Positions 108 to 50,682 of a stretch of 64,000 nucleotides of DNA are shown piece by piece. Origin of the DNA: Nitrospira sp. MA-1 (lineage in GTDB: Bacteria > Nitrospirota > Nitrospiria > Nitrospirales > UBA8639); contig JAQJDB010000005.1 in the NCBI GenBank assembly GCA_032139905.1, forward strand, positions 293,001-357,000. The letters run 5' to 3'. The position numbers were made by a program, and so were the translations under genes. Numbering within the stretch: the first letter of the stretch is position 1; each line of letters opens with the position of its first letter. The notes beneath the pieces were generated by a model that ran no database searches, was not told the DNA's origin, and was given only the letters and a program-made list of their open reading frames with translations.

Positions 108-788
108 CTAGGATCGTTGGGAATGTGTATCCAAATAGTCTCTCCGCCAGATGACGTATGCCGTAAAAGCCACGAGTGAGATAAAGAACGCGATGCGAAT
201 GCGTCCGAATCCAAAGCATGTAAAGTTGGTGGTGGCATTGAGAATGCCAAAGCCGGCATAGGCCAGGAAGACAAATAAGGCCCAACGACGCAGCTTGAGA
301 AAGCCATACCCTATGGCGACATGAAGTGCGGGGGATTGCGCTTTGAATAACAGACCTAAGATTCCTGTCGGTTTGGTGCAAAAGACGGACAGGTGGTATT
401 CAGGGTTCACCAAAATAATATACAGGTCCATGAGGGCTGTCCACAGAAACAACCCGCCAAGAAACCGCAGGTCGTGAGCGCGTTTCCAGGCAAGGCGTAA
501 CGTGTCCAATTGGCCTGGTGGGGTTGGAAGATACGCTTGATAAGCTTGAAGACACCACCACGGCAAAATAACCAACATGCCAAAGAACAAGCCCGCTCCC
601 AGTCCTCCGACGGCTCCGAGAGCCCAGGTGACGACACCGAGCAGGCCTCCCACCATCAGCACCCAGATCATATGAATGGGATACCCCCGGACCAGTTGTC
701 CAAGTCCTGGAAGGAAAGTCGAGAGAATCCCCCCAAGCGGAGACGTGTGCGAATGATCGGATGTAGAACAATTCACTTCAGATTCCAT
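108..788 (-). CDS. Multi-pass membrane protein of unknown function
   Basis: A 226-residue protein with about five to six hydrophobic segments. Near the N-terminus it has a PGLGQ-type turn (residues around 25-30) like those in small TM2-like membrane proteins, and it ends in a basic, hydrophilic tail. I place the start at the ATG at 788. The open frame continues upstream to 878, but that extension is translated from the edge of the palindromic repeat and is unlikely to be coding. No strong ribosome binding site is visible. No enzymatic motif is seen and I do not recognise a function. Confidence 0.6.
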   Translation of the reverse strand: MESEVNCSTSDHSHTSPLGGILSTFLPGLGQLVRGYPIHMIWVLMVGGLLGVVTWALGAVGGLGAGLFFGMLVILPWWCLQAYQAYLPTPPGQLDTLRLAWKRAHDLRFLGGLFLWTALMDLYIILVNPEYHLSVFCTKPTGILGLLFKAQSPALHVAIGYGFLKLRRWALFVFLAYAGFGILNATTNFTCFGFGRIRIAFFISLVAFTAYVIWRRDYLDTHSQRS

Positions 789-846
789 GGGAAGGAAAAT
801 GATAGAGATGTAAGTGCCTGAGGGCAAGCCGGGCAGAGGGGGTCTG

Positions 847-954
847 TTGAAAAAAGCCGCCAGCGGCGTTCTCGCCATTTTTCCGTGCTCACGTACTAAG
901 CGTACGCTCCGCGCGTAAAAACGGCTGCGGCCTTGCTGGACGGACTTTTTTGAA
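847..954. repeat. Dispersed palindromic repeat, copy A
   Basis: A 108-nt element bounded by TTGAAAAAAG on the left and CTTTTTTGAA on the right, which form an imperfect outer inverted repeat. An inner CACGTACT/GTACGCTC segment and a GCGGCGTTCTCGCC arm follow. The same element occurs at 46412-46519 (same length) and 50040-50170 (with an insertion). The layout suggests a long imperfect hairpin, in the style of REP or MITE sequences. It lies between the membrane protein gene and a response-regulator remnant. Confidence 0.85.
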
Positions 955-1059
955 CCGACCCGGAGCCTTTGATGAGTAATCTATTCCTGGGCAAATTTGT
1001 CCTTGAAAATCTTTATTATTTAACACTCCCAGAAGAGATCGACAGGATGCCATCGAAAA

Positions 1060-7347: not shown

Positions 7348-9360
7348 TTACCTCCAGGAATAGGTTTGATCTTCTTCAACTAAACTCCAAGTGTCGAAAT
7401 AGGATGGCGGGATGTGATCCAGATACCGTGAGGGTTTCGTGAGGACCGATCCGGTCATTTTATCGTACACATTGATGGGGTAGGTGAGGAAGAGGTGGTG
7501 TTTGGCTCTGGTGACCGCGACGTAGAGCAGCCGGCGCTCTTCTTCCAGTTCTTCGGGACCCATGAAGGAGTAGGCGGAGGGAAACCGTCCGTCCACCAGC
7601 CAGATGACAAAGACGCATTGCCACTCTAAGCCCTTTGCCGAGTGAATGGTGGAAAGAATCAACCGCTCATCGTCCCGATCGGGGGCATCCACGTCCACCA
7701 CACTTTCATTCGGGGGCTCAAGTGTGAGATCGGCCAGGAAGTCGTTGAGACTTTCGTATCGTTCCGCCATGACGGATAAATGTTCCAGGTCCCGAATCCG
7801 CTTGGGGTAATCGTCATACTGGTCTTTGAGGAGAGGAACATAGTATTCCATCATTTCCCCGAGCAGCGCGGCGGGGGTGAGGGGATCTTCCGTGACCTGA
7901 TCCAGTGTGGCGGCCAGTTGGCGCAATCCCGAGGCGGAGCGGCCGGTGCTGTGCTTCAAGACCTCATACTGGCCATGGGCTTGGAGGATGGACGCGATCA
8001 GGTCTTTGGCTTTTTTGGGGCCGACCCCTTCGAGGAGCAAGAGGAGCCGGTTCCAACTAACGGTGTCCAACGGATTGTGAATGATCCGCAAATGGGCCAT
8101 GAGGTCTTTGACATGCGCCGTTTCGATGAATTTGAACCCGCCTCGTTTTATGAATGGGAGGTTTCGGCGGGTGAGTTCCAATTCGAGGTCAAAGGCATGA
8201 AAGCTGGATCGAAACAGCACTGCGATCTCATGTAAGGGGATACCTTCTTCCCTTAATTCCAGAATTTTTTGAGCGATGAATCGCGATTGGGCATTTTCCC
8301 CCATCGCCTCTACGACGGTGGGTAATGGTCCTTCCTCCTTCCGCGTAAACAGCGTTTTACTGTATTTTTCCGGCGCTGCTTCGATGAGTTTGTTGGCCAG
8401 TCGGAGAATCGGTTGCGTGCTCCGGTAGTTTTCCTCCAATTTGTAAATGACGGCCCCAGGGAAGAGGTCGGGAAATTCCATAATATTGCGGAAGGTGGCG
8501 CCGCGAAAGGCGTAGATAGATTGCGAATCGTCGCCCACCACCATGACATTGTCATGGGTGGCCGCCAGATTGCGGACCAATGAGGCTTGCAGGCGATTGG
8601 TGTCTTGATATTCATCCACCAAAATATAGCGAAAGATCTGACTGATGGTTTCTCTGGTCGGTTGGTCGATGACCAGAAGTTCAAGGAGTTTGACCAGGAG
8701 GTCGTCGTAATCCACGAGTTGCCGTTGGCGCTTGGCGGCCTCATAGGCGGCCTGGAGTTTCTGGAGTTCTCCCAGATACTCCCCGAAGTGGCTGTATTCG
8801 TTGATGACAATGTTTTCCAGGCTTTCCAGTGTGTTGGCCGTTTTGCCGAATATTTCGGATAGGGTATGTTTGCGCGGGAACCGTTTGCCGGTATCATTCA
8901 GCCCCAATTGGCCACGGAGGAGGCTCAGGAGATCTTCAGAATCTCCACGATCGAGTATCGTAAACCCCGGTTCCAGGCCGACGGGACGGCCATATCGTCG
9001 AAGGAGGATATTGGCCATGGAGTGGAAGGTCCCACCGCCGACTTGCTGGGCGCGGAGTCCGATGAGGAGTCCGACCCGGCTGAGCATTTCCTGTGAGGCT
9101 TTTCGGGTAAAGGTCAGGAGTAATATGGAGCTGGGTACAATGCCCAGGTCGATGAGTCTGGCGACCCGGTACACCAGGGTGCGTGTTTTTCCGCTGCCGG
9201 CGCCCGCAATGACGAGGGCTGGACCTTCCACGGCTTCCACTGCGGCGAGTTGTTGGGGATTTAATTCTTCCGCGTAATTACGCGATAATTTTGGTGGAGT
9301 AGACTCCTCCAGTGGGCGTTTCAGGACATAAACTTTGGATGGTGGCGTAGTGGAATCCAT
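7348..9360 (-). CDS. UvrD/Rep-type ATP-dependent 3'-5' DNA helicase
   Basis: A 670-residue superfamily 1 helicase. Visible motifs are the Q motif with NPQQLAAV, Walker A GAGSGKT (53-59), TFTRKAS (Ia), Walker B DEYQD (249-253), motif III GDDSQSIYAFRGA (about 277-289), motif IV LEENYRS, and late motifs STIHSAKGLEW and LLYVAVTRAK. The length is close to Rep/PcrA. Such enzymes unwind DNA in repair and replication restart. The 34-residue N-terminal extension is not conserved in the family. It is the first gene of a two-gene unit with the HExxH protein. Confidence 0.93.
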   Translation of the reverse strand: MDSTTPPSKVYVLKRPLEESTPPKLSRNYAEELNPQQLAAVEAVEGPALVIAGAGSGKTRTLVYRVARLIDLGIVPSSILLLTFTRKASQEMLSRVGLLIGLRAQQVGGGTFHSMANILLRRYGRPVGLEPGFTILDRGDSEDLLSLLRGQLGLNDTGKRFPRKHTLSEIFGKTANTLESLENIVINEYSHFGEYLGELQKLQAAYEAAKRQRQLVDYDDLLVKLLELLVIDQPTRETISQIFRYILVDEYQDTNRLQASLVRNLAATHDNVMVVGDDSQSIYAFRGATFRNIMEFPDLFPGAVIYKLEENYRSTQPILRLANKLIEAAPEKYSKTLFTRKEEGPLPTVVEAMGENAQSRFIAQKILELREEGIPLHEIAVLFRSSFHAFDLELELTRRNLPFIKRGGFKFIETAHVKDLMAHLRIIHNPLDTVSWNRLLLLLEGVGPKKAKDLIASILQAHGQYEVLKHSTGRSASGLRQLAATLDQVTEDPLTPAALLGEMMEYYVPLLKDQYDDYPKRIRDLEHLSVMAERYESLNDFLADLTLEPPNESVVDVDAPDRDDERLILSTIHSAKGLEWQCVFVIWLVDGRFPSAYSFMGPEELEEERRLLYVAVTRAKHHLFLTYPINVYDKMTGSVLTKPSRYLDHIPPSYFDTWSLVEEDQTYSWR

Positions 9361-43221: not shown

Positions 43222-45792
43222 TCAGAATTCTTCGAGTAGGCGTTCTCTCGCCTTCTGGGACTTCTCGAGCGCATCGCGCCAGTATTCATCGAGTAGCGGG
43301 CCGATCTCGGTATCAACAACCTGGCGGAACCATTCACGGGCATCACTGATCGGAATACCAAACGGAGGCGTGACATAGCTGTGTCCCACTTGGAACTGAG
43401 GTCCGAGACCAGTGTCGGCTGAAATTTCGCTGTTCAGAGCAATGAGACGCTTTTGGATTTCGACAAGGATGTCTGAATCAATACCGCACTGGGATTGAAC
43501 CCAGTCGTGCCAGGGCTTGCCGAGCGTGGGCTCCAAATCGATGAAGGCAAAACGGCGGCGCAGCGCCAGGTCGACCAGTGCGAGGGAGCGGTCGGCAATA
43601 TTCATCGTGCCGATGACGTAAAGGTTGTCCGGGATGAAAACGCGCTCACCATCCGACCGTTTATAGGAAAGCTCCAAGGCTTCATTCGGCGTTCTCTTGT
43701 CCACCTCGAGCAGCGTCAGCATTTCCCCAAAAATCTGTGCGGGATTCCCGCGATTGATCTCTTCGATGACGACGACGTGCCTTGACGTGGGATCTTTTGC
43801 GGCTGCCTTCATCATCTCGACAAAAGGCCCATCCACCAGCGTGAGCTTGCCGTCTCCCACCGGCCGCCAGCCCCGTACAAAATCCTCGTAAGAAAGGTTC
43901 GGGTGAAACTGGACCGCTCGGACTTTGCTGTCGTCGCGCTGCCCCATCAAAGCGAAAGCCAATCGCTTTGCCAACCAGGTCTTTCCTGTTCCCGTAGGAC
44001 CCTGAAGGATAAGGTTTTTCTTGGTCCGAAGGCGTTCGAGAATCTTTTCTAGTTTTTCCCGTGCCATGAAACATCCATCGCCCATAATATCGTCTATCGA
44101 ATACGGCTCAATCGGCTGAGTTTCATCAGCAACAAAAGGTGAAGCAGAAAAGAAATCTGTAAAGCGCCTATATTTCTCTAACTCAGCTTGAGGCAAGCTT
44201 AATAAAGCCAAACCCCTTTCAGTAATTTGGACAAATCCTCTTCTAGGGAAATCGACCAGTTCAGCCTTTTTCAGGTAAGACTTTGCCCAAGCTGCACGGT
44301 TGTCGAACAAAGGCTGCCCTGTCGACTCAAGAGTTACGACATCATACTTTCCGAGTCCCATTTCTGACTTCATTTTTTGGTACACCTCATTTGCGAGATA
44401 CTCCTTCTCGTCTCTTATGAGTTTTAAAAATGGGATCATCAAATCATCAAACTTAGGCAGCAGGCTCTTTAGATCAGCATCTATTCCGTCTGGCGAAATT
44501 ACTCCATCATCGGTTTCAAACGACTCAATATCCAGGTCAGTCGCGTATGGGTGGGCAGATGTCCCGCTGTCCTTAAAAAGCCAGGCGGCAAGTGACAGCT
44601 CCGGAAAGGAGTGGACTGGATACGCATCCTCTTGGAAGCGGGCTTCGAGGGTATCCAGCACAGCCAGATAATCACTGGCATTACAGCGCCCTTTGGGGCC
44701 GTTCATTCCAATCTGATTATTGAGTTTCTTGCTGATGTAACGCTGGGACTGACCGTCAAGCGTCGGGAAATTCCAGGGGCGAATCCAATAAAGCCCCATT
44801 GTAAGGTTCCATCCCACACCATAGCGCTGGGTCGCTTTGTCGTAGGCAGTGGAAAATGCCGACCGAGCCTCCGCGTCATCCAATTCCGCGAAAGCAATTG
44901 CCTGGGCGAAGGCTTCCCATAGAGTGTCAATGTCATCTGGTTGGCGTTTGTTGTCGAATCCGAAAAACCATGACTTCTGATTGTTGAGAATCGGAATCCC
45001 CTCAAAGGAGTCTGGGACAGGCTCGGACACTCCAAGTAGACTGGCCAGTTCGCTCGCAATAGCTTTGCGATTGGCATCGGTGATCCCCCGGTTGAATATG
45101 CCCATGGCCGTAAATGGGCAGATGTCCTTCAGAGGGCCAGATGAACCATCTGCAAATTGATCCTGCAGGTTGGAGAGGCCATCAACTTTGGAGGCGATAG
45201 CGTGGATTCCGGAAATCAGCTCATCTCGCCGGTACCGAAATGTAAGGAGTTTGTCGGCTACCGCCTCATAAAAGCGGGTCCAATTGAAGCGGCGTTTGTC
45301 GACGGAGGTATCGCCGAAACGCTCTCGCCAGTAAGGAGCGTTGCGGAAACGGTTGATGTCCTGCGCCTTTTCTTCGAAGGTAAATCCAATCAAAGCGTCT
45401 GTGGTCCAGTCACCAGGCAAGACCCGCCAGACCGTGCTTCGATTGGTAAAGAAGTACCACTCACGCGGAGGATCGAAGGGTTTCCAAACAACATTCAATA
45501 TACGGCCATCTCCGAGGTTCTGTTTTACCGTTCCAATGGCTTTGATCGCCATGACTGAAACAGTTTGACCTCGATTATCAAAGGGCAGATCGTGTTTCCG
45601 TGTATAGGACGATTTGATTGCAATACGGTCCCCAACCTGGATGGACTTTACTACGTCGAGGTATTTGTCCTGATAACCATTCTCCCAAATGCCTTCCTGC
45701 AGAAAACGGGGTGTTTGATCCTCGGTTCCATCATATGTGGCCCCGACAAACCAGCAGGCTCGGGCTCCGGCTCCTTTAGGTTTAGAATTCAT
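43222..45792 (-). CDS. mcrB: McrB-type AAA+ GTPase with an internal Mrr_N-like winged helix
   Basis: An 856-residue motor of the McrBC system. Residues 10-125 look like a PUA/EVE-type DNA-base reader (ACWFVGATYDGTEDQTPRF...GIWENGY). Residues 280-410 form an unassigned domain. Residues about 443-535 match an Mrr_N winged helix (DDLMIPFLKLI..., LFDNRAAWAKSYLKKAELVDFPRRGFVQITERG). The AAA+ domain begins near 565 with GPTGTGKT (598-605), Walker B HVVVIEEINRG (672-682) and the McrB signature MNIADRS (730-736). GGAGAGGAG precedes the ATG. The Mrr_N insert is uncommon and may set target choice. Confidence 0.9.
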   Translation of the reverse strand: MNSKPKGAGARACWFVGATYDGTEDQTPRFLQEGIWENGYQDKYLDVVKSIQVGDRIAIKSSYTRKHDLPFDNRGQTVSVMAIKAIGTVKQNLGDGRILNVVWKPFDPPREWYFFTNRSTVWRVLPGDWTTDALIGFTFEEKAQDINRFRNAPYWRERFGDTSVDKRRFNWTRFYEAVADKLLTFRYRRDELISGIHAIASKVDGLSNLQDQFADGSSGPLKDICPFTAMGIFNRGITDANRKAIASELASLLGVSEPVPDSFEGIPILNNQKSWFFGFDNKRQPDDIDTLWEAFAQAIAFAELDDAEARSAFSTAYDKATQRYGVGWNLTMGLYWIRPWNFPTLDGQSQRYISKKLNNQIGMNGPKGRCNASDYLAVLDTLEARFQEDAYPVHSFPELSLAAWLFKDSGTSAHPYATDLDIESFETDDGVISPDGIDADLKSLLPKFDDLMIPFLKLIRDEKEYLANEVYQKMKSEMGLGKYDVVTLESTGQPLFDNRAAWAKSYLKKAELVDFPRRGFVQITERGLALLSLPQAELEKYRRFTDFFSASPFVADETQPIEPYSIDDIMGDGCFMAREKLEKILERLRTKKNLILQGPTGTGKTWLAKRLAFALMGQRDDSKVRAVQFHPNLSYEDFVRGWRPVGDGKLTLVDGPFVEMMKAAAKDPTSRHVVVIEEINRGNPAQIFGEMLTLLEVDKRTPNEALELSYKRSDGERVFIPDNLYVIGTMNIADRSLALVDLALRRRFAFIDLEPTLGKPWHDWVQSQCGIDSDILVEIQKRLIALNSEISADTGLGPQFQVGHSYVTPPFGIPISDAREWFRQVVDTEIGPLLDEYWRDALEKSQKARERLLEEF

Positions 45793-45805: not shown

Positions 45806-46384
45806 TTATTTTCCGTTCCCAGTTATCAGGGCCTCCTCATCGATCTCGAACAGATCAGGTGTGGAGCGATGGATCCCGATGCCGTTCTGCTTCACGAGCA
45901 TCATGAGCTGTTCCCCATTCATTAACGTGACGGGGGGCTTTTCTGGCTGGACAGCTTCCTTGACGGCTCTTAGGCTGAAGTCGCGGGTTGTGGTGATCGG
46001 ACCATGCCTATGCGTTTCCAGGCTGCCGCTCAGGTTGTCGTAATCTTTTTCGATAGACTCCATGGCGTCGATGATGGCCTTTGCACAATCATCTTTGTCG
46101 GGCAACGACACGAGATGGTCGAACTGTGCCTGTGACCGCAGATAAATGGCGCTTTGCTGGGAGAAGTCCTCCTTGGTCAGTGCACGCGTTTTGCCGCGAC
46201 TGGGCAGCGTCGGATCGATCTTCGCTTTCACCGTGAGATAGCGGCTGTAGGCATGGCGGAGGAACACCAGACCCATCACGGGCAGGAAGTATTCATTGCT
46301 GGCGTAGTTGGAGCTGGATCGCAACAAATCCGCCGCAGACCAGAGGCGCTTTTCGTTAGCTTCGATGTGTTCGAGTTGGGACAT
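45806..46384 (-). CDS. Chimera: HsdM N-terminus joined to an Mrr-like C-terminal piece
   Basis: A 192-residue protein. Residues 1-75 read as the start of a type I methyltransferase HsdM (NEKRLWSAADLLRSSSNYASNEYFLPVMGLVFLRHAYSRY, in pieces), but the methyltransferase motifs that should follow are absent. Residues 135-185 (PPVTLMNGEQLMMLVKQNG...FEIDEEAL) resemble the C-terminal part of Mrr-type nucleases. It is most simply a fusion left by deletion and is probably not a working enzyme. The stop is 13 bp before mcrB. Repeat copy B starts 28 bp beyond the start codon. Confidence 0.6.
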   Translation of the reverse strand: MSQLEHIEANEKRLWSAADLLRSSSNYASNEYFLPVMGLVFLRHAYSRYLTVKAKIDPTLPSRGKTRALTKEDFSQQSAIYLRSQAQFDHLVSLPDKDDCAKAIIDAMESIEKDYDNLSGSLETHRHGPITTTRDFSLRAVKEAVQPEKPPVTLMNGEQLMMLVKQNGIGIHRSTPDLFEIDEEALITGNGK

Positions 46385-46411
46385 GGGGGTTGTGGTTCTC
46401 GTTACGGAAGG

Positions 46412-46519
46412 TTGAAAAAAGCCGTCAGCGGCGTTCTCGCCATTTTGCCGTGCTCACGTACTGAGAGTACGCTCCGCGCGTCAAAATGGTTGCGGCCTTG
46501 CTGAACGAACTTTTTTGAA
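46412..46519. repeat. Dispersed palindromic repeat, copy B
   Basis: A 108-nt copy of the element at 847-954, with the same TTGAAAAAAG start and CTTTTTTGAA end and most of the interior unchanged. It lies between the HsdM chimera and ssrA, at the edge of the defence locus. The small minus frame at 46402-46587 is a translation of this repeat and is not a gene. Confidence 0.88.
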
Positions 46520-46910
46520 TCTTCCTTTTCACTGCTGCTGGGCAGCTTCCCTGCCCGCTTTATGAGGCCAGGGCATGAAATATTCACCAGGCCTCGTTAT
46601 GTTGCTGTGGTGTTCGTGTCCCCATGGGAAGTCGTTGCGGGCAGCCATAGCACATGCTCTGGGGCCCCCAAATATCGGGTCCACACCGCAATTTGTCGGT
46701 GCTTGTTCCTGCGGCCATAAGTGAACTGATTAAGGGGTGCCCATGCTGAATCCTTATGAAATGTTTGGGGAACTATAGCATTTACCTCTTATTGTTCCAC
46801 CAAAAAAAATTCGATCCGGACATCCACAAGGCTGGGTGTGATTTGGCGTTTTTGTTCACTTAATTGAATTGTTCATGTTTCGTGAACATGGGGATGGGAC
46901 TAAAAAAAAT
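46520..46910. other. Gap of about 390 bp between repeat B and the ssrA terminator
   Basis: No frame with a start signal is seen. A small inverted repeat CATGTT/AACATG lies near 46874-46890, possibly an operator or just chance. Nothing else noticed. Confidence 0.4.
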
Positions 46911-46941: not shown

Positions 46942-47293
46942 TGGTGGAGGTGAGGGGAATTGAACCCCTGTCCGAGAACATTCAGCGCAACAGCCCTACG
47001 TGTGTAGCCGATGATTTGGTTTTTCGCAGTTGCCCACGCCCACCGACCGGCTTAGAGCGCCCGCTAGCCCAGAATTTTCTCGTCCGCCGCCGCTGAGCAC
47101 CAGCTTTGGACCAGCCTGCAGTGTGACGCCCCTTCCCCCCCCGCAGACAAAGAGAGGAGGGACGTCGCGGTCAATTAAGCCGCGAGAGCCAAATTATCGT
47201 TGGCAATTAAGTTTTTCCCGAAGGTTTTACGAGACTCCGAGAGCTCGACACGCTCTGTTGACCTCTTGATTCCCGTCGAAGCCAGTCACCCCC
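46942..47293 (-). ncRNA. ssrA: Transfer-messenger RNA (tmRNA)
   Basis: A 352-nt RNA that rescues stalled ribosomes. The 5' end GGGGGTG pairs with the 3' CACCTCC before an encoded ACCA, and a T-arm with GGGTTCAATTCCC precedes it. The resume frame reads ANDNLALAA then TAA (47178-47207), a typical proteolysis tag. The 5' GGGGGTGACTGGCTTCGACGG sequence is a family hallmark. It is followed by its own terminator. Confidence 0.95.
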
Positions 47294-50023: not shown

Positions 50024-50039
50024 TCTGTTCCCGGGGCTG

Positions 50040-50170
50040 TTGAAAAAAGCCGCCAGCGGCGTTCTCGCCATTATTCCGTGCTCACGTACTGGAAGTACGC
50101 TCTGCGCGAAAAAAGGACTGCGGCCTTGCTGGGGGAACTCTTCGAAAGGCTCAGGGCATGCTTTTTTGAA
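50040..50170. repeat. Dispersed palindromic repeat, copy C (with insertion)
   Basis: A 131-nt copy of the element at 847-954 and 46412-46519. The arms and centre match. About 23 extra bases (CTCTTCGAAAGGCTCAGGG and flank) sit inside the right arm before CTTTTTTGAA. It lies between a secreted-protein gene and the large lipoprotein gene. Confidence 0.85.
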
Positions 50171-50682
50171 CCGTCCCCGAGGCCACTGATCTGCAACGTG
50201 CTAATAGGTGGGTGAAGTCGTCAAAATTTTCGGGTATTCCCCGATTGAAGTTCGCTTCCCCTTCTTGAATTCAAGAGCTGAAAAAGTCTGGAGGTGTTGT
50301 TCCTGATAGCTATTCGTGCTCACGTATTCCGTATGAGGACCGTATACCAAACCTCATCGAAGCGGAAACCCGGCGAGTGCGTATGGAATGACATCACATT
50401 CAATGGCGCTGCCCGTTGGGACTCGATGAACCTCGAAATCATTGACGCTGACCTTGCCGTCATCAAGTTTCTGCCCTCACACGTACCGTCTTTTTTTATT
50501 CTCCTTTCAGTCATCTGTATTCGTGACGAGGAACGGCCTATGTTTGTTGATTCTGTTCGTTTCTTTCGTTATGTTGGCCACGGGATACGATTCCGATCGA
50601 GTGCTGAAGGCTAGTTCTTGATGCGCATACGCGCAAAACAAATATACCGATTCATGACATCTGATCAATATTGGGGGATCAT
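50171..50682. other. Gap of about 510 bp with a short cysN-like fragment
   Basis: The bases 50208-50235 match 54078-54105 inside the cysN fusion gene at 25 of 28 positions, in the same orientation. The minus frame reads PENFDDFTH against PENFDDCTH. No complete gene is seen. The rest likely holds the promoter of the gene at 50683. Confidence 0.4.

What the first reader, a model, noticed from the sequence alone, without database searches (positions are those of the whole stretch)
847..954. Three-copy long palindromic repeat marking accessory regions
The 108-nt element at 847-954 recurs at 46412-46519 and, with an insertion, at 50040-50170. All copies share TTGAAAAAAG and CTTTTTTGAA ends and a strongly conserved interior that can fold on itself. 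All lie at the edge of accessory DNA (IS remnant, type I/McrBC locus, unknown secreted genes). It could be a non-autonomous element or a REP-like hairpin moved by a trans-acting transposase, or a processed RNA.
Basis: partly seen in the sequence, partly recalled or inferred. Interest (0 to 1): 0.7.

Follow-up and report, generated by a model that had tools for sequence, protein, structure and literature searches.

The report
Hairpin-carrying miniature transposon of Nitrospirales
The three repeats are copies of a roughly 190-base non-coding jumping element (a MITE) found in dozens of copies per genome in this nitrite-oxidiser-related bacterial group; it apparently depends on another element's transposase, and its unusually conserved folded core appears in related elements across much of the phylum Nitrospirota.

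Summary
The repeat is real, but 847-954 is only part of it. The mobile unit is 191 bp (copy 1: 840-1030). It has short terminal inverted repeats (GGGTCTGTTGAAAAA / TTATTCAACACTCCC), a 122-nt imperfect palindrome on its left, and a ~69-bp tail. Exact 5-bp target duplications flank 47 of 78 well-bounded copies (0.4 expected). Exact empty sites occur in congeners for window copies 1 and 2. The window's genome has at least 40 copies and all 19 congeners carry it. It is a MITE, a non-autonomous DNA transposon. A ~1.22-kb insertion sequence (IS) with near-identical ends, the same 5-bp duplication, and a DUF772/DDE transposase between the IS1182 and IS5 families occurs in relatives and is the likely helper; none was detected in the window's genome. 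REP/RAYT origin is not supported: there are target duplications, and no Y1 transposase is linked. The hairpin shows strong covariation, which selection or arm homogenisation could explain. In a sister family the same hairpin core (35 near-invariant bases) sits in elements with different ends (CAGG...) and a 4-bp YTAR duplication, matching IS1182-like IS. It is a known kind (MITE) in an undescribed form whose core seems to have survived a change of transposase partner. Transposition was not tested.

The parts
840..1030 (+). MITE copy 1, full 191-bp unit (type A)
   Evidence: Ends GGGTCTGTTGAAAAA / TTATTTAACACTCCC; exact empty site in three congeners
835..839 (.). left target duplication of copy 1 (AGAGG, one mismatch to the right copy)
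   Evidence: Empty sites in L316, L326 and L327 hold a single such stretch
1031..1035 (.). right target duplication of copy 1 (AGAAG)
840..961 (+). conserved palindrome of copy 1 (contains the reported 847-954)
   Evidence: Model R1, 147 bits; fold z -4.2
46405..46594 (+). MITE copy 2, 190 bp, degenerate outer ends (CGGAAGG...CAGGCCT)
   Evidence: 5-bp duplication CGTTA on both sides; empty in G006 (L317), filled in G005 (L318)
46400..46404 (.). left target duplication of copy 2 (CGTTA)
46595..46599 (.). right target duplication of copy 2 (CGTTA)
50033..50177 (+). MITE copy 3, palindrome part; tail similarity fades by about 50220 and the right end was not found
   Evidence: Model R1, 91 bits over 50033-50153
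50138..50160 (+). 23-nt nested hairpin module inside copy 3
   Evidence: Pattern CCCTTCG..GGCTCAGGGCATG; 73 of 75 such sites lie in or next to MITE copies

Best explanation
The repeat is a MITE: a ~190-bp non-coding DNA transposon whose ends imitate those of a small insertion sequence. Shown from sequence: defined ends, exact 5-bp target duplications, a preference for A/T-rich targets flanked by CC and GG, exact empty sites in relatives, and an IS in relatives with nearly the same end sequence and the same 5-bp duplication. Inferred: the IS transposase (~317 aa, DUF772 + DDE_Tnp_1) recognises the shared ends in trans, cuts the element out or copies it, and joins it to 5-bp staggered cuts. The left ~122 bp forms a long imperfect hairpin whose left arm begins at the element's own left end. 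Its two near-invariant boxes probably serve mobility (transposase or host-factor docking near the end) or make the insertion tolerable to the host. One box, GGCGTTCTCG, starts at base 26 from the end in the MITE and in the right end of some helper IS copies. What the hairpin does is not shown.
For: Copy number: at least 40 copies in the own genome and matches in 20 of 20 genomes of the genus. Ends and duplications: 47 of 78 copies have exact 5-mers at the predicted ends against 0.38 expected from mismatched pairing; shifting the register by one or more bases leaves 0-5. Empty sites: copy 1 in G010, G001, G009; copy 2 in G006; own copy L012 in G010 at 96% flank identity. Helper IS: 15-bp ends GGGACTGTTGAATAA, 13-14 of 15 identical to the MITE ends, 1199-1228 bp, exact 5-bp duplications TATAG, CTTCA and ATGTC in 3 of 7 copies; one IS end reads GGGGCTGTTGAAAAAAGC, identical to type-B MITE left ends. 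Sister family: hairpin elements with CAGG... ends and YTAR 4-bp duplications (19 of 39 against 6.8 expected) match IS1182-like IS with similar ends and 9 of 12 exact YTAR duplications.
Against: No gene for the helper transposase was found in the window's genome (no match at 1e-10) or in G002, which is rich in copies; G001, G009 and G019 hold only broken fragments. The helper for these particular copies is thus lost or not the one found. Sequence similarity between MITE and IS beyond the ~15-bp ends is weak except at one end of one or two IS copies. Four of seven helper IS copies lack an exact 5-bp duplication. No transposition was observed.
Confidence: 0.9

Rival explanations
1. REP/REPIN-type palindrome dispersed by a REP-associated tyrosine (Y1) transposase.
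For: Palindromic, intergenic, multicopy; Y1_Tnp genes over the Pfam cut-off occur in 18 of 20 genomes of the genus.
Against: Y1 (HuH) transposition leaves no target duplication (established knowledge), but 5-bp duplications are the rule here. The unit is ~190 bp, not 20-40 bp. The own genome keeps only a sub-threshold remnant with stops. Only 2 of ~30 Y1 loci have a copy nearby, about what copy density predicts.
Confidence: 0.02
2. A host-selected structured element (bidirectional transcription terminator, processing site or small RNA) that also happens to move.
For: Strong covariation on the hairpin (15 pairs changed on both sides within the genus set, 27 across families, 0 of 500 shuffles). 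A-tract/hairpin/T-tract layout on both strands. A terminator-like hit in each copy, though only a short internal stem. Own copies sit between convergent genes (8) more than divergent ones (2).
Against: Sites are polymorphic between congeners, so no fixed host role at these places. Arms of a palindrome can be homogenised by template switching, giving paired changes without RNA selection. 8 against 2 is too few to judge. No Rfam match.
Confidence: 0.25
3. Chance similarity, or parts of larger duplicated blocks.
For: Some sites are shared between species, as in old duplications (L318, L319, L324).
Against: At least 40 copies with unrelated flanks, exact ends and empty sites.
Confidence: 0.01

Closest known systems
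MITEs (miniature inverted-repeat transposable elements) of bacteria, e.g. MITEAba12 (PMC6382973, found by search; body not read)
   Same: Short, non-coding, terminal inverted repeats, target duplications, many copies, ends matching an IS
   Different: Most of the element is one long conserved hairpin that begins at its left end, and that core is shared by elements with different ends and different duplication lengths in a sister family
IS1182-family and IS5-family insertion sequences
   Same: The helper transposase scores best against NCBIfam IS1182 (E 2e-43) and IS5_4 (E 8e-39) and carries DUF772 + DDE_Tnp_1; sister-family hairpin elements share ends and YTAR duplications with IS1182-like IS
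   Different: The helper falls below both NCBIfam cut-offs (149 of 270 bits; 133.7 of 140) and makes 5-bp duplications; it may be an unnamed group
REP/BIME/REPIN with RAYT (PMC2817692, PMC3116915, found by search; bodies not read)
   Same: Palindromic, mostly intergenic, multicopy
   Different: Longer, with target duplications and DDE-type ends; no linked Y1 gene

Membership tests
MITE (non-autonomous DNA transposon) | Terminal inverted repeats | tested here: met
   GGG..TGTTGAA(A/T)AA at both ends, inward-facing pairs ~190 bp apart
MITE (non-autonomous DNA transposon) | Target-site duplication | tested here: met
   5 bp, 47 of 78 exact against 0.38 expected
MITE (non-autonomous DNA transposon) | Insertion polymorphism / clean empty sites | tested here: met
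   Exact empty sites for window copies 1 and 2 and further copies
MITE (non-autonomous DNA transposon) | No transposase gene of its own | tested here: met
   Complete units are 185-243 bp; the one 1.4-kb copy is a MITE split by an IS110-family IS
MITE (non-autonomous DNA transposon) | Cognate autonomous element with matching ends and duplication length | tested here: met
   ~1.22-kb IS with 15-bp ends 13-14/15 identical and 5-bp duplications in 3 of 7 copies, in other genomes only
MITE (non-autonomous DNA transposon) | Mobilised in trans by that transposase | not testable with these tools
   needs a transposition assay
IS1182-derived element | Helper transposase passes the IS1182 family cut-off | tested here: not met
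   149 bits against cut-off 270
REP / RAYT system | Linked Y1 transposase gene | tested here: not met
REP / RAYT system | No target duplication | tested here: not met
   5-bp duplications
Known RNA family (Rfam 15) | Match at gathering score | tested here: not met
   Only tRNA and tmRNA in the window

The most novel reading that the evidence does not exclude
The hairpin core is a transferable cassette with its own function. It has kept two near-invariant boxes (CCGCCAGCGGCGTTCTCG and CTGCGGCCTTGCTGGAC) across families of Nitrospirota while its flanking ends, tail and duplication length changed (GGG ends and 5 bp in one family, CAGG ends and 4-bp YTAR in the other). A non-autonomous element thus switched transposase partners while keeping a selected DNA or RNA structure.
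Probability: 0.35. Interest if true: 0.7.

Novelty: new variant of a known kind. Interest (0 to 1): 0.45.

Why it matters
It replaces a vague 'REP-like or RNA' label with a defined mobile family with exact ends, duplications, empty sites and a likely helper IS. It shows that most genomes sampled from two Nitrospirota families (nitrite-oxidiser-related bacteria) carry copies of this hairpin element, often many. If the core really survived a change of transposase, it offers a natural experiment on what a MITE must keep to succeed, and on whether insertions bring portable terminators or RNA structures.

Tried and rejected
RAYT linkage: rejected. Tn3-family helper, considered because of the 5-bp duplication and GGG ends: Tn3 transposases occur in only 4 of 20 genomes and not in copy-rich G000, G001, G002 or G009. 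DDE_Tnp_1 loci of the genus: only one (L156) had matching ends and led to the helper. Own-genome DDE_Tnp_1 genes (L131, L146) lack matching ends. A 1431-bp pair of ends in G002 is a MITE interrupted by an IS110-family IS, not an autonomous form. IS of ~1.19 kb with GGAAGGTCTGATT ends and YTAR duplications in the sister family do not share MITE ends. Nested hairpin modules as separately mobile REPs: nearly all lie in or beside MITEs (73 of 75; 53 of 53), none near Y1 genes. Tail similarity between the two element families: not convincing (24 of 500 shuffles as good). Plasmid, phage and viral-contig searches: no match. Searching papers for the box sequences: none.

Full report
What was checked. 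The 108-nt repeat is present three times as reported, and a covariance model finds exactly those three sites in the window. Aligning the ~40 copies in the window's own genome with their flanks showed similarity running well past 954.

Anatomy. The unit is 191 bp in its commonest form. It starts GGGTCTGTTGAAAAAAG (type B: GGGGCTG...; type C: GGGAGTG...) and ends TTATTATTCAACACTCCC. The left 122 bp is an imperfect palindrome whose right arm ends in an inverted, diverged copy of the left end (TTTTTTGAACCGACCC). A ~69-bp tail then leads to the right end. In the window the copies are 840-1030, 46405-46594, and 50033 onward (right end not found). Some copies carry extra hairpin modules of 23-34 nt at fixed positions; copy 3 carries one at 50138-50160. 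At one shared site two genomes have the 23-nt module and a third lacks it (L013 and L324 against L323).

Mobility. With these ends, the five bases on either side are identical in 47 of 78 copies whose right end is clear, and four of five match in 11 more; mismatched pairing predicts 0.38 and 2.8. Shifting the register by one or more bases leaves 0-5 exact cases. Targets are A/T-rich, roughly CC-ATNAT-GG. Searching ten joined flanks against 20 genomes of the genus found contiguous matches through the junction, i.e. sites without the element. Alignments show exact empty sites with one copy of the 5-mer for window copy 1 (G010, G001, G009), window copy 2 (G006) and others, while G002 and G005 hold the element at the copy-1 and copy-2 sites respectively. 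This is insertion, not block duplication.

Helper. Families tested for a matching autonomous element were Y1 transposases, Tn3 and DDE_Tnp_1. One DDE_Tnp_1 locus, L156, is bounded by GGGACTGTTGAATAA and its exact inverse, 1224 bp from end to end. Its ~317-aa transposase has DUF772 and DDE_Tnp_1 domains and sits between NCBIfam IS1182 and IS5_4, below both cut-offs. Relatives with 77-93% identity occur in other congeners and another genus, and with 81-90% identity in a sister family. Three of seven well-bounded copies have exact 5-bp duplications. MITE ends match IS ends at 13-14 of 15 bases. The right end of two IS copies also has GGCGTTCTCG starting at base 26, the same register as the MITE. 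No such gene was found in G000 or G002, so current mobility there is doubtful. Own type-A copies are more diverged (mean identity 0.86, n = 5) than those of G002 (0.935, n = 20).

Hairpin. On 21 non-redundant palindromes of the genus set, 15 of 43 pairs show changes on both sides; 45 cells against 14.0 +/- 2.7 in shuffles, and slid controls collapse. Across two families (70 sequences) it is 27 pairs and 386 cells against 147 +/- 14; that alignment was fitted to the model, so it leans towards the structure. Two stretches stay near-invariant (CCGCCAGCGGCGTTCTCG and CTGCGGCCTTGCTGGAC) while the outer and middle helices change by paired substitutions. Paired changes can come from selection on a folded strand, but also from template switching between arms, so they do not prove an RNA function.

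Range. The hairpin model hits 87 of 245 genomes drawn from the phylum, in 24 of 115 genera, and nearly every genome drawn from the sister family. There the elements have ends CAGG(A/C)TG(C/T)TGA... and favour YTAR targets: 19 of 39 exact 4-bp duplications against 6.8 expected. Those ends and YTAR duplications match IS1182-like IS in the same family, 9 of 12 with exact duplications. Tails of the two element families are not convincingly similar. The core thus outlasted a change of ends; whether by partner switching or gradual change is open. Contig lengths identify G009 as NPIRA03 and G010 as NPIRA06. One Bacteroidia and one 'Nitrospinota' label may be binning or naming matters.

Genomic context. 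By a crude ORF call, 28 of 36 own copies are intergenic; convergent neighbours 8, divergent 2, too few to conclude. Copy 2 lies ~20 bp upstream of the start of a 192-aa ORF (45806-46384, minus), next to a large ORF at 43222-45792 that reads like an McrB-type ATPase (not tested by HMM). Copy 1 supplies the start codon and first codons (MARTPLAAFFN...) of the ORF called at 108-878.

Limits. The own-genome count is a lower bound (40 of 55 candidates scored). No transposition or expression data exist here. Family names of the MITE, Y1 and IS classes rest on established knowledge and HMM hits; no paper body was read.

Noticed in passing
window 108-878 (-): The called ORF starts inside MITE copy 1; its first residues (MARTPLAAFFN) are MITE sequence, so the annotated start would be an artefact or a fusion.
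   Followed up: no
L118 (G002:C1:1892500-1896000), 1022-2452: An IS110-family IS (333-aa transposase) sits inside the hairpin of a MITE copy.
   Followed up: partly
L121 (G002:C1:16134-16220): An 87-bp copy lacks the whole hairpin yet has both ends and an exact 5-bp duplication (ACAAG).
   Followed up: partly
MITE copies, e.g. window 50138-50160, L320, L325: Small hairpin modules (23-34 nt) recur at fixed sites within MITEs and are almost absent elsewhere in the loci examined; their origin is unexplained.
   Followed up: partly
window 8900-8992 and 46942-47293: A predicted selenocysteine tRNA and a tmRNA gene (tag ANDNLALAA) lie in the window; copy 2 is ~350 bp from the tmRNA.
   Followed up: no
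L418-L435: Multi-copy IS5-like IS in the sister family (GGAAGGTCTGATT ends, ~1.19 kb, YTAR duplications), up to 14 matches in one genome.
   Followed up: partly
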